Assembly: GCF_000226095.1 (NCBI RefSeq)
Contig: NC_016476.1
Span: forward strand, 1,054,001 to 1,118,000
DNA from: Thermothelomyces thermophilus ATCC 42464
Taxonomy: Eukaryota; Ascomycota; Sordariomycetes; Sordariales; Chaetomiaceae
Length of the DNA stretch: 64,000 bases
Reading direction: 5' to 3'
Both the position numbers and the translations under genes were made by a program. This document shows, one piece after another, positions 21,885-26,124 of the stretch (position 1 is the first letter of the stretch; the number at the start of each line of letters is the position of its first letter). Under the pieces are notes generated by a model. It saw only the letters and a list, made by a program, of their open reading frames with translations. It searched no databases and was not told where the DNA came from.

Positions 21885-23175
21885 TGTCCAACCGAGTTTC
21901 CGAGTCAATCCCGGTGAAGAAGCGGACTCGGGCGTCTCAAGGGTTCAAGTGATTTTTGGGTACTGGTCGATGATGAAATGATGAGGTGAGCAGGTGGGAA
22001 CGGGAAGGCGCCAGCGCTCTTCCAACGCAACACTGCTCACACGCAGCACGCAAACAACCCGTGGAAAGGAGGGGAAGGGGGTTTGAGCGGGACGGCGGGT
22101 GGAACGAACGAAGGAAACTTCCTCAACGACAGCCTCGAGCTGCGAACGGATCAACCGCGTTGCAAAGCCCTCGAGGTCATCTTGTACGGTGGCCTGACCG
22201 GCGCCTCTTGTTTTAATCGTTCCTCGGAGGGTGAGCCAACCACGGTCACCGGACCTGCGGCGGGCCTCATTGGCCGGAACCTCGAGACCTCCCAAGGCCT
22301 CGTTTCGCACGCTAATTTTAGGGTCACCCGCCGTTTTGGGACGCCATTTGGAGGCCATGCGGCACCGGCGAATCAGCTGCCGCAGAATCGCCAACCGGCA
22401 CTTCTGTGACGGTTTCAGCGATAATGCCGTCCTCCGCAGGGGCACGACTCGGAAGTGCCACTGGCCTGCAGAACATGCATGCATACCCCACAGCGGGCGG
22501 TTTTGAGCCGCTCAAACAGCAAACAGCCGCCTCACAATGTTGGGGCTACTGCAAGAAGGGCAGTTTCCGCCATGAAACAACACCGGATCTGGACTGAGTC
22601 TCACTCAGCCGAGCCGTCCGACAGGGCTCTTGGCGGATGATCGACGAATGAAACCCTGTCTGGAGATCTCGGCACAGCAAACTATCCCAGTCTTGAGCGT
22701 CGAGAAATCCGATTTGGGGGCGATCTGTTGGCACCCATTCTCGAAAACCCTTGAGCTTATGATACTTGTTGCGATCCGCCCAAAACTCGATTTGGATTAA
22801 GAAGCAACATCTCATCGCATAATGGACAAAGCCCCAAAAAGGAAGGGTCGTGTCATATCCAGACGAGGCGTGAAAGTTGACAACCAAGCCCACTTGCCAT
22901 GACGAGCGCGTTCCGGGTTTGTCATGTGCACAGCTCCACACTGACGGCACGTCGGGTCATTCTGAACCAAGGAAGTCGGGAGTGCTGTGGTGTTGTTGTC
23001 CAGGCGTAGCAAGACATCCAATATCGATTATCTCGGTAAATTAATGTCGAGCATGGCGCGCTGGCGTCATTGAACTTGACCCAGGTTCCCTAATAATCCT
23101 CCCTCCCATTCCCATCCTAGATTCCTCCAACTGTTTCCCCCCTTCCCCTCTTCATCACCCCACCCCACCCCACCT
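21885..23175. other. Intergenic, no gene seen
   Basis: 1.3 kb holding the promoter side of the Ser-rich gene and the 3' side of the CPV-repeat gene. The overlapping open frames on both strands do not resemble proteins. Confidence 0.4.
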
Positions 23176-23628
23176 TCACACCTTGACACCAGAAACCGGG
23201 CAGACGGCTCCCTCGCCGGCGCGGCTGACATCCGGATGCCCGTGCAGCTTCCCCTTGTGGTGTCCGACCTTGGCCTTGGTCACGGGACAGACGGCCTCGT
23301 CGTCCTTGTTGTCGGTGGGAGGGTGGTCGGGGGGCAGGACGGTCGTCGCGGTGCCGACGACGGGGCACACGTCGTCGTCCATCGCCTTGCTCTTCTCCTC
23401 GTTCACCAGCCGGCCGCTGATCACGGGGCAGGCCGAGGCGTCAGAGGGAGAGCGGCCCTTGGGGATCGGCACGGCGGGGTGCTTGTGCAGGTTCGCGTGG
23501 TGGTCTGTCGTGGCGCCAACGACGGGGCAGATCTGGCCGGGCTTGGAGAGGTCGATGTCGGGATGCGAGGGAGGGAGGGTGGTATTGGTCGTGCCGACCA
23601 CGGGGCAGTTCGCTTTCGTCGAGGCCAT
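23176..23628 (-). CDS. Small Cys-Pro-Val / His-Pro repeat protein (unnamed)
   Basis: 150 aa, no intron, ATG at 23628 in good context (AAAAATGGCC). All six cysteines (8, 34, 67, 88, 114, 143) are followed by Pro-Val. Four segments end in His-Pro (22-23, 50-51, 102-103, 131-132). The motifs form an A-B-C array twice over: A = CPVVGT..T.LPP.HP (8-23 and 88-103); B = CPV......HH...LH.HP.V (34-53 and 114-134); C = CPV(I)SG..V (67 and 143). There is no signal peptide, no membrane helix, no Trp and almost no large hydrophobic residues, so the protein is probably soluble and disordered until it binds something. Cys-Pro is the core of heme-regulatory motifs, and paired His would suit heme or metal ligation. 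That is inference only. No named family is recognised. Confidence 0.8.
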   Translation of the reverse strand: MASTKANCPVVGTTNTTLPPSHPDIDLSKPGQICPVVGATTDHHANLHKHPAVPIPKGRSPSDASACPVISGRLVNEEKSKAMDDDVCPVVGTATTVLPPDHPPTDNKDDEAVCPVTKAKVGHHKGKLHGHPDVSRAGEGAVCPVSGVKV

Positions 23629-24967
23629 TTTTTGTTAGCTAAGGTAATTAGCTTGTGGGCGAATTGAGCGTGGATCGAGCTGCAGTCGATTACGGAATGC
23701 TCCCAGAGCAGTGAAGCAGGTTTCGAGGAGGTCTCTTCGTGAGCGGAATGTGTATAAAGTGATCACCTCCAGGCAGATATCACCTTTTTCGTCCCTCTGA
23801 ACCGTTCGCCTGGCCTGCCCCGCGGCCAACAACAGCGCTAACAACAACAGCCCTGAGCCTTCCACTAGCCTGAGGGGCAATGACGTAGTAGAGTCAGAAA
23901 GACCGCATTCGGGTGTGTTTGAGCCAATAGACAGAACGAACAGCTTTGCAGCTGGCAGAGAGATGTGGGGCTGTGCGGGGCGGGTCTAGGCCCGCTTGCT
24001 CAATCATACCGGAGGCATTGGTCAGGAGAGTTTCAGGGCGCTGACCAGAGAAGTGGCCCCGCAAGCTCTCCCATCATCTGGGCTCCTCACAAAGCCGCGA
24101 GTGAACATGCGAAAGCAGTGCTTCTGGCTGTTTCGTGGAGGGGCGCGACTTAAAGCCGTCGGCAAAAACCATCGAACAATGATAAAAGAAAGAGAACTCT
24201 AACGGTCAGTGACACACATCTGTGAAATGCCAAAAGTCAGCTTGTCAACCCAACTTTTCCGATGTTGTCAGAGGCATGTCGTGGTTTTCCAGGTTCTACC
24301 CACCACCTGCAGCTACATGACGGCTGCAAACGGCCTTCAATACGGAACGGCAGGCCAACATAGGCAGGTTTGCCTAGATGCCTAGATGCCTAGATGCCTA
24401 GATGCCTAGATGCCTAGATGCCTAGATGCCTAGCCAAAGCAATCAGCTCGCTTGAACTCCGTGATTGCACGGTGCATCAACAAGGCATCGGCGGCAATCG
24501 CAGTGCTTTGGCGATGGCACTGTCGAATCGAAGCGCTTAAACCTCGAGAGCTCCAGTGCACGCGCTACAGAGCATTCCGTATTATATAACCCAGGTCAGC
24601 TATATTGCCGCCCACAGTAGGTACGGAGTACCATCGGGCCACAACAAGGGTGGGAGAGCGCGCGCGAGTTATATCATCATCGAGAGCGTACCAGAGTAGG
24701 TTGCACACGGGCAGTTGATGACGTCGCTCTTACACCAAAGCTTGCGCAGCTGCACCAGGTGATCGCCTGTGAGGCGAATCCAAAATACGTCGGCTCTAGT
24801 GCTCGTGCGAGAGTCCTGGTGCCGGTATAATATGATGCACCTTGCGGTGGACTATTAACCGACTTGTGTTTGCTCTTTCTCTTTCATCCTACCGCTTTCC
24901 GCCTTTTATTCCCCCCCCCCCAATTTTTTTGAAATTTATTCAGTCAGAAGGACAGCGAGAAGCCAAA
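23629..24967. other. Intergenic between divergent genes
   Basis: Shared upstream region of the CPV-repeat gene (minus) and the opsin gene (plus). It holds the 8-bp minisatellite at 24371-24434, one TACGGAGTA word at 24622 and a run of about 11 C then 7 T at 24910-24930 just before the opsin start. The open frame at 23635-23880 (minus) lacks an ATG and is probably leader. Confidence 0.5.
24371..24434 (+). repeat. 8-bp minisatellite, 8 units
   Basis: Eight perfect head-to-tail TGCCTAGA units, the last one base short of perfect. Too short and without spacers, so not CRISPR. Confidence 0.9.
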
Positions 24968-26124
24968 ATGATTTCCCCAGACCAAGTCAACGAGATGCTC
25001 TACCCGGCTTCAACCACCTCGAAGCCGGGGCCGATCCCCACCGTTGTCCGTACGTCATCACCCCTAGGCCCTTGATCCCCTGATCTTCGAAGCTATACCC
25101 CTCCCCCCTTGCCCTCTCCCCTTGGTTTTCGTACCCGACCCCGTCGACCCCGTCTCACCGGGCGAGGCCAAAGAAGACTAACACACCAGCTCTCCAGCAA
25201 ACCCGACCGAGTACCAGCTGGCGGGTGATGTGGGCCACCGGACGCTGTGGGTGCTCTTCGCGGCCATGACCATCACGACGGCCGTGTTCGCGCTGCTGTC
25301 GTGGAACGTGCCGGTGGCGAAGCGGGTGTACCACGTGACGACGACGCTGCTGGCGCTGGTGTCGGCGCTGGCCTACTACGCGATGGCGACCGGCTACGCG
25401 TCGTCGCTCAGCTGCCGTCCCGTGCGCGACAGTCACGGCGACCACCTTCCCGACACCTTCCACGACGCCTGCCGCCAGGTCTACTGGGCCCGCTACCTCG
25501 ACTGGGCCATCGCCAACTCGCTGCTCCTGCTCAACCTATGCCTCCTCGCCGGCGTCGACGGCGCCCACACCCTCATGGCTATCGTCGCCCACCTCGTCAC
25601 CATCCTGGGCGGCTTCGCGGCCGCCTACGCCGCCGAGCGCACCGGCCAGATGTGGGGGTGGTTCGTCATCGCCTGCCTCGGCTACCTCTTCGTCGTCTGG
25701 CACGTCGGCCTGCACGGCACCCGGTCGGTCAAGGCCAAGGGCGCGCGCGTGTCCAAGCTGTGGGCGTCGCTGAGCATCTACTCGCTCGCGGTTCTGGCCG
25801 CTTATCCGATGTAGGTGAACCGGGGACAACCCCCCCTTTTATGTTTTATGTTCCGAGTTTCGCCCCGCTCGAGAGAGAGACGTGATTGACTGATATCTGC
25901 TTGTTGCGTACAGTGCTTGGGCCATCACGACTCTTGCTCGCAAGACCGACGTGAATACCGAGATTATCGTCTACGCTGTGCTGGATGCCCTGACCAAGCC
26001 GGTGTTTGGCCTTTGGTTGCTCATCAGCCACCGCGCCATCCCCGAGTCTAACATCGAGATTGCGGGCTGGTGGTCGCAGGGCTCGTCTGCCGAGGGAAGA
26101 ATTCGCATTAGCGACGAAGAATAA
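24968..26124 (+). CDS. Divergent microbial-type opsin (fungal rhodopsin, opsin-related)
   Basis: Seven-helix membrane protein, 301 aa, of the bacteriorhodopsin-like family. Exons are 24968-25049, 25198-25810 and 25914-26124, with standard GT..AG introns. Helix C reads RYLDW (126-130), keeping Arg82 and Asp85 of bacteriorhodopsin. The next fixed TTP triad is Ala-Asn-Ser (133-135), and the Asp96 donor position is Asn140. Helix F has AAYPIAW, where the Trp182 position is Leu. Helix G has VLDALTKPVFG, with Lys260 at the Schiff-base site and Asp256 at the Asp212 position. So the chromophore-binding lysine and both counterions remain, while the pump donor and several pocket residues are gone. This points to a sensory or auxiliary opsin rather than a strong pump. 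The start ATG gives the usual fungal length and N-terminus. Confidence 0.9.

What the first reader, a model, noticed from the sequence alone, without database searches (positions are those of the whole stretch)
23176..23628. A small protein built from a duplicated array of Cys-Pro-Val and His-Pro motifs
Every one of its six cysteines is in a CPV motif, spaced 21-33 residues apart, and four segments end in His-Pro. The units fall into types A, B and C in the order A-B-C-A-B-C (A: CPVVGT..LPP.HP; B: CPV..HH..LH.HP.V; C: CPV.SG). This implies an internal duplication of a three-motif block with strong selection on Cys, Pro and His. Cys-Pro is the core of heme-regulatory motifs (established for HAP1, Bach1, HRI), and nearby His could be the second ligand. 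Binding of heme or a soft metal, or a redox role, is my inference. I know of no named family with this layout.
Basis: partly seen in the sequence, partly recalled or inferred. Interest (0 to 1): 0.78.

Follow-up and report, generated by a model that had tools for sequence, protein, structure and literature searches.

The report
Fungal Cys-Pro and His-Pro repeat protein
A small, unnamed protein found in many ascomycete fungi is built of repeats that place a cysteine-proline near histidines, and in one fungal lineage the same repeats are joined to a glutathione S-transferase, which suggests an unrecognised carrier of heme, metal or thiols.

Summary
Window 23176-23628 (minus) encodes a 150-aa protein with six Cys, all in CPV, and four HP. 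It has one match in its own assembly and belongs to a fungal family without a curated name. All 133 short members listed (window protein included) have exactly six Cys-Pro; over 61 non-redundant members CP and HP columns are 99.8-100% conserved against 61% for the rest. Cys-Pro is the invariant core; CPV at all six sites holds in 50 of 133. In Taphrinomycotina and in unnamed proteins, the same repeats (7-13 Cys-Pro) precede a glutathione S-transferase domain in 10 of 14 long relatives. AlphaFold gives no confident fold. 106 of 133 members weakly match the ALA-synthase presequence profile, but the window protein does not. I favour a soluble multi-site heme buffer (about 45%). Against it, Cys-Pro surroundings are neutral to acidic. 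Glutathione-linked thiol chemistry and soft-metal binding remain open; no binding has been tested. A real new family of uncertain function, in a known motif class.

The parts
23176..23628 (-). Coding sequence, 150 aa plus stop, apparently one exon; one match in its own assembly
23530..23607 (-). Unit A1 (residues 8-33): CPVVG..LPP.HP, His at +14 from Cys
23431..23529 (-). Unit B1 (residues 34-66): CPVVGA...HH..LH.HP, His pair at +9/+10
23368..23430 (-). Unit C1 (residues 67-87): Cys-Pro without conserved His, with weakly predicted short helices
23290..23367 (-). Unit A2 (residues 88-113): CPVVG..LPP.HP, His at +14
23203..23289 (-). Unit B2 (residues 114-142): CPVTKA...HH..LH.HP, His pair at +9/+10
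23179..23202 (-). Unit C2 (residues 143-150): CPVSG at the C-terminus

Best explanation
A small soluble protein that carries or buffers heme. Each unit would offer an exposed Cys-Pro thiolate as a weak, exchangeable ligand for ferric heme; in A and B units conserved His at a fixed distance (+14, and +9/+10) could take the heme over or act as second ligand. Six such sites (seven to thirteen in the fusions) in a mostly flexible chain would make a high-capacity, low-affinity heme reservoir. In Taphrinomycotina the array is joined to a GST domain that could bind glutathione and help load, unload or protect the thiols. Shown: sequence, repeat order, fixed spacing, conservation, GST fusion. Inferred: heme as ligand, solubility and location, buffering, the GST's role.
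For: All 133 short members listed have exactly six Cys-Pro and 131 have no other Cys. Over 61 members below 80% identity (window protein included) identity to the window protein is 1.00 for CP columns, 0.998 for HP, 0.989 for LPP, 0.93 for His and 0.61 for the other 118. His is at +14 in 265 of 265 typed A units, and the second His of the pair at +10 in 265 of 265 typed B units (the typing rule itself asked for a His, at 13-17 and 9-11). 106 of 133 members match Pfam Preseq_ALAS at E<=0.05, while 0 of 6 scrambles of one member (P0094) that keep its CP motifs match it at E<=1. ALA synthase's first two Cys-Pro motifs are reported to control its mitochondrial import by heme (PMC12856317, passages). 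Cys-Pro with a nearby His can recruit heme on Cys and pass it to His (PMC10377097, passages). GST-fold proteins that bind heme exist in nematodes (PMC6988263, abstract; PMC10377359, passages). Fungal Hhy1 binds hemin partly through a CPC motif (PMC13135908, abstract and passages). 10 of 14 long relatives carry GST domains by precomputed Pfam.
Against: Nonapeptides around the Cys-Pro are neutral or acidic: mean charge -2.2 at site 4, -1.3 at site 5, between -0.2 and 0 at the other four. A negative net charge is reported to inhibit heme binding, and Cys-Pro alone is not sufficient (PMC6356037, passages). Cys-Pro peptides are mostly five-coordinate whether or not a His is present, and the tested Cys-Pro/His distances (+1 to +5 from Pro) are shorter than those here (PMC10377097, passages). 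An aliphatic residue before Cys, frequent in heme-binding Cys-Pro motifs, is found in 19 of 133 at site 2. Preseq_ALAS is not matched by the window protein (E up to 10), and comparison of the family profile with two single ALAS presequences is not significant. A simple promoter scan of 23629-24968 found no SreA, Hap1 or SRE site; three CCAAT and one GATA site, uncontrolled, say little. No expression or binding data turned up in the listings of ten paper searches.
Confidence: 0.45

Rival explanations
1. A glutathione-linked thiol relay: the isolated Cys-Pro thiols are reversibly glutathionylated or otherwise oxidised, and the protein is a thiol buffer or the substrate of a GST, as the fused GST in Taphrinomycotina suggests.
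For: GST fusion in 10 of 14 long relatives: two named species and eight unnamed entries. The GST part of P0137 aligns with phi-class and other GSTs of the PDB. Single, spaced Cys with no CxxC.
Against: Does not explain the conserved His at fixed distance or the Pro after every Cys. The short members lack a GST, and a search with P0137's GST part found no close counterpart in the window's genome at E<=0.01 (the tool warns that an empty answer without a known positive shows nothing; nine GST N-domain matches exist there).
Confidence: 0.2
2. A soft-metal or transition-metal binding protein (Cu, Zn, Cd) that uses Cys plus His, a metallothionein-like store with spaced ligands.
For: Six Cys and ten His in 150 aa; nine of the ten His are at least 92% conserved. 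Cys with a His pair at +9/+10 is a plausible chelate. GSTs take part in metal detoxification (recalled).
Against: No CxC, CC or CxxC clusters; neighbouring Cys-Pro are 20-43 residues apart in the 133 members. Metal thiolates do not need Pro after each Cys (general knowledge). Two AlphaFold runs give no confident compact fold, though a metal could be needed for folding.
Confidence: 0.2
3. A flexible scaffold in which the repeated Cys-Pro, LPPxHP and HH motifs are docking peptides for a protein partner and bind no cofactor.
For: Low-confidence fold (pLDDT 60 and 67, pTM 0.38 and 0.34); short strictly spaced motifs with some variable linkers.
Against: Strict retention of Cys, which docking peptides rarely need (general knowledge); conservation centred on residues that can ligate heme or metal.
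Confidence: 0.15

Closest known systems
ALA-synthase presequence (Pfam PF09029, Preseq_ALAS), heme-regulatory motifs
   Same: Cys-Pro motifs in a poorly structured stretch; 106 of 133 members match the profile at E<=0.05 and three of six scanned one by one pass the curated cut-off.
   Different: No synthase domain follows; six motifs in a duplicated triad; the window protein itself does not match; comparison with two single presequences is not significant.
Heme-regulatory-motif proteins (HAP1, HRI, HO-2 recalled; Bach1 with six CP motifs seen in a passage of PMC12162314)
   Same: Several Cys-Pro in flexible sequence.
   Different: Those are motifs inside large regulators or enzymes; here the whole protein is the array and His positions are fixed.
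Cytochrome c heme lyase (PF01265)
   Same: In the window's genome one lyase frame begins with three Cys-Pro motifs and a second has CPVDH and CPANH.
   Different: Enzyme domain present; no A-B-C repeats and no LPPxHP in the frames read.
Heme-binding GSTs of nematodes (HRG-2, Hc-HRG-2)
   Same: GST fold linked to heme handling; long relatives of the window protein are fused to a GST.
   Different: No Cys-Pro array is mentioned in the abstract and passages I saw; heme binding of the fungal fusions is untested.
S. pombe Hhy1
   Same: Fungal cytoplasmic hemin binder that uses a CPC motif (PMC13135908, abstract and passages).
   Different: 463 aa with an amidohydrolase-like domain; not described as a repeat array.

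Membership tests
Preseq_ALAS (PF09029) | Score over the curated cut-off of 21 bits | tested here: not met
   Window protein: 0 families at E up to 10. Relatives: P0094 26.3, P0089 25.8, P0120 22.2 over; P0104 20.7, P0050 19.8, P0042 18.9 under.
Preseq_ALAS (PF09029) | Followed by an ALA-synthase catalytic domain | tested here: not met
   The 150-aa protein ends in unit C2; the genome's ALAS lies on contig C3, this gene on C5.
Heme-regulatory-motif proteins | Cys-Pro dipeptide | tested here: met
   Six in each of 133 short members listed.
Heme-regulatory-motif proteins | Charge around the motif not negative | tested here: inconclusive
   Sites 1, 2, 3 and 6 near neutral on average; sites 4 and 5 negative in 132 and 120 of 133.
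Heme-regulatory-motif proteins | Reversible heme binding with functional effect | not testable with these tools
   Needs spectroscopy and genetics.
Metallothioneins | Clustered Cys (CxC, CC, CxxC; recalled) | tested here: not met
   Neighbouring Cys-Pro 20-43 residues apart in 133 members.
Glutathione S-transferases | GST domains in the protein | tested here: not met
   None in the window protein; present in fused relatives.
Cytochrome c heme lyase | PF01265 domain | tested here: not met
   No Pfam match of the window protein.

The most novel reading that the evidence does not exclude
The family is a dedicated, repeat-built heme store of ascomycetes, a heme counterpart of a metallothionein: every A and B unit pairs one Cys-Pro with His at a fixed distance, capacity scales with the number of units, and glutathione and a GST (fused in Taphrinomycotina, separate in Pezizomycotina) load and unload it.
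Probability: 0.3. Interest if true: 0.85.

Novelty: new variant of a known kind. Interest (0 to 1): 0.6.

Why it matters
How labile heme is moved and kept safe in the cell is still poorly known. A conserved protein made almost only of Cys-Pro/His-Pro units gives a simple object to test: one small purified protein and one deletion strain. The natural fusion to a GST names a biochemical partner. If it binds metal or handles thiols instead, it is still an unnamed family shared by Taphrinomycotina and Pezizomycotina.

Tried and rejected
Membership in the ALA-synthase presequence family was considered because Pfam assigns a few relatives to it; rejected for this protein, though the resemblance of P0094 is not explained by its Cys-Pro alone (0 of 6 CP-kept scrambles match). 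Fold: AlphaFold with 30 and 133 sequences, then Foldseek and VIA-align on the second model, gave no PDB match. Bacterial/archaeal and viral contigs: 33 and 13 pattern stretches, none confirmed. Promoter scan: three CCAAT, one GATA and two AGGGG sites, no expectation computed; not used. Two long hits are set aside as possible gene-model joins, not tested: P0145 (sugar transporter) and P0143 both leave the family sequence just after unit A2. What I did not see: 187 of 307 and 338 of 458 hits were not listed, so presence in Saccharomycotina, Basidiomycota and most Eurotiomycetes is untested. Ten paper searches, seen as listings of at most 20 papers each (one had 1,524 hits), showed no paper on this family; I opened abstracts or passages of eight papers and one full section.

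Full report
What is there. The frame at 23176-23628 on the minus strand encodes 150 residues. All six Cys are in CPV; four HP and two HH are present. The order of units is A-B-C-A-B-C. The two triads are 48% identical over 62 residues, and the alignment of the halves exceeds all 5000 shuffles of either kind, including the control that leaves CPV, HP and HH in place (that control comes close, maximum 125 against 129). A pairs with A (score 77) and B with B (55); C1 and C2 are not alike (23), so the C type rests on position only. The protein has one match at E<=0.001 in its own assembly of 38.7 Mb in 7 contigs; a search with the long Taphrina relative finds this gene and one further match at E 0.5. 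From genome size, contig number and the nearest named relative (Corynascus, 85% identity; Chaetomiaceae) the genome is probably a Thermothelomyces; this is inference from recall. Relatives align over the full length without an insert, so I take the gene as one exon.

Family. A homologue search gave 307 proteins at E<=1 and a profile search 458 at E<=0.01; only the best 120 of each were listed, 133 different proteins of 138-179 aa, the window protein among them. The organism names shown are, as far as I recognise them, all ascomycetes; of these I looked up two, a Sordariomycete and a Dothideomycete. All 133 have exactly six Cys-Pro; 131 have no other Cys. CPV at all six sites holds in 50 of 133; the third residue varies most at site 3 (A 63, V 60, F 9, I 1). 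HP count is four in 118, five in 14 and three in 1. In 131 of 133 my unit rule returns A-B-C-A-B-C; the other two miss one unit each. Over 61 sequences below 80% identity, identity to the window protein is 1.00 for CP, 0.998 for HP, 0.989 for LPP and 0.606 for the other 118 columns. The first spacing is 26 in 133 of 133 and the fourth 26 in 129, while the second varies. His lies at +14 in 265 of 265 typed A units, and at +9 and +10 in 264 and 265 of 265 typed B units. The typing rule asked for these His but allowed a range of distances.

Fusions. To look for longer proteins I joined three members into a 452-residue query. It found 14 proteins; 10 carry GST domains by precomputed Pfam. I rescanned 10 of the 14; 6 of those 10 have GST domains over cut-off, P0134, P0136 and P0143 have none and P0145 has a sugar transporter. 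Named GST carriers are Taphrina deformans (P0135, N-domain only) and Savitreella (P0141), both Taphrinomycotina; Protomyces (P0134, Taphrinomycotina) has 11 Cys-Pro and no GST, and P0136, without organism name, has 13 Cys-Pro and no GST. The commonest order is ABC-ABC-ABC-AB-B-C, 6 of 14, with the GST after it. The ten GST carriers have 7 to 13 Cys-Pro and zero or one other Cys; the ones with 7 and 9 may be incomplete. In the three arrays measured (P0135, P0136, P0137) the two hexads are 49-52% identical to each other and 48-54% to the window protein. The hexad is thus shared by Pezizomycotina and Taphrinomycotina; doubling and GST fusion are seen on the Taphrinomycotina side. P0145, from a Eurotiomycete, carries the start of the short form. 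The GST part of P0137 aligns with phi-class and other GSTs in the PDB. That part found no counterpart at E<=0.01 in the window's genome (with the tool's warning that this shows little), although nine GST N-domain matches exist there.

Fold. AlphaFold gave mean pLDDT 60 with 30 sequences and 67 with 133; pTM 0.38 and 0.34. In the second run 76 of 150 residues reach 70-90, so it is not uniformly disordered, but there is no PDB match. In both models isolated bridge residues flank the Cys-Pro of units B1, B2 and C2; at this confidence that is only a hint.

Heme or not. For heme: Cys-Pro throughout, conserved His, a weak but systematic resemblance to the ALA-synthase presequence profile (106 of 133 at E<=0.05; 0 of 6 CP-kept scrambles of one member), and heme-binding GSTs elsewhere (PMC6988263 abstract, PMC10377359 passages). 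Published peptide work, seen in passages, says that Cys-Pro alone is not enough, that extra His or Tyr generally raise affinity, and that negative net charge appears to inhibit binding (PMC6356037); that Cys-Pro can hand heme to a His, but that Cys-Pro complexes are mostly five-coordinate even with a His and that only short distances were tested (PMC10377097). Against heme: the sites here are neutral to acidic, and the aliphatic residue frequent before heme-binding Cys-Pro is present in 114 to 133 of 133 at five sites but in only 19 of 133 at site 2 (74% of background 4-mers have one). So the ALAS link is a hint, not homology shown.

Verdict. A real, strongly constrained, uncharacterised protein family. 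The heme reading leads at about 45% but is unproven; thiol/glutathione and metal roles together are nearly as likely. The GST fusion is the most useful new fact.

Noticed in passing
25182-25814 (+): The divergent neighbour encodes a bacteriorhodopsin-like protein (PF01036, E 4.6e-23).
   Followed up: partly
24371-24433: Perfect 8-bp tandem repeat TGCCTAGA, 7.9 copies, between this gene and the opsin-like gene.
   Followed up: no
23045-23638 (+): A 197-codon stop-to-stop frame runs antisense over the whole gene; no Pfam match at E<=0.01. Probably a by-product of GC-rich codons (inference).
   Followed up: partly
L007 1501-2151 and L008 1327-2355: The genome has matches to cytochrome c heme lyase at two places of contig C4; the first frame begins with three Cys-Pro motifs.
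   Followed up: partly
P0143 and P0145 (proteins): Two longer relatives leave the family sequence at the same place after unit A2, one into a sugar transporter; possibly gene-model errors at a shared splice-like site.
   Followed up: no
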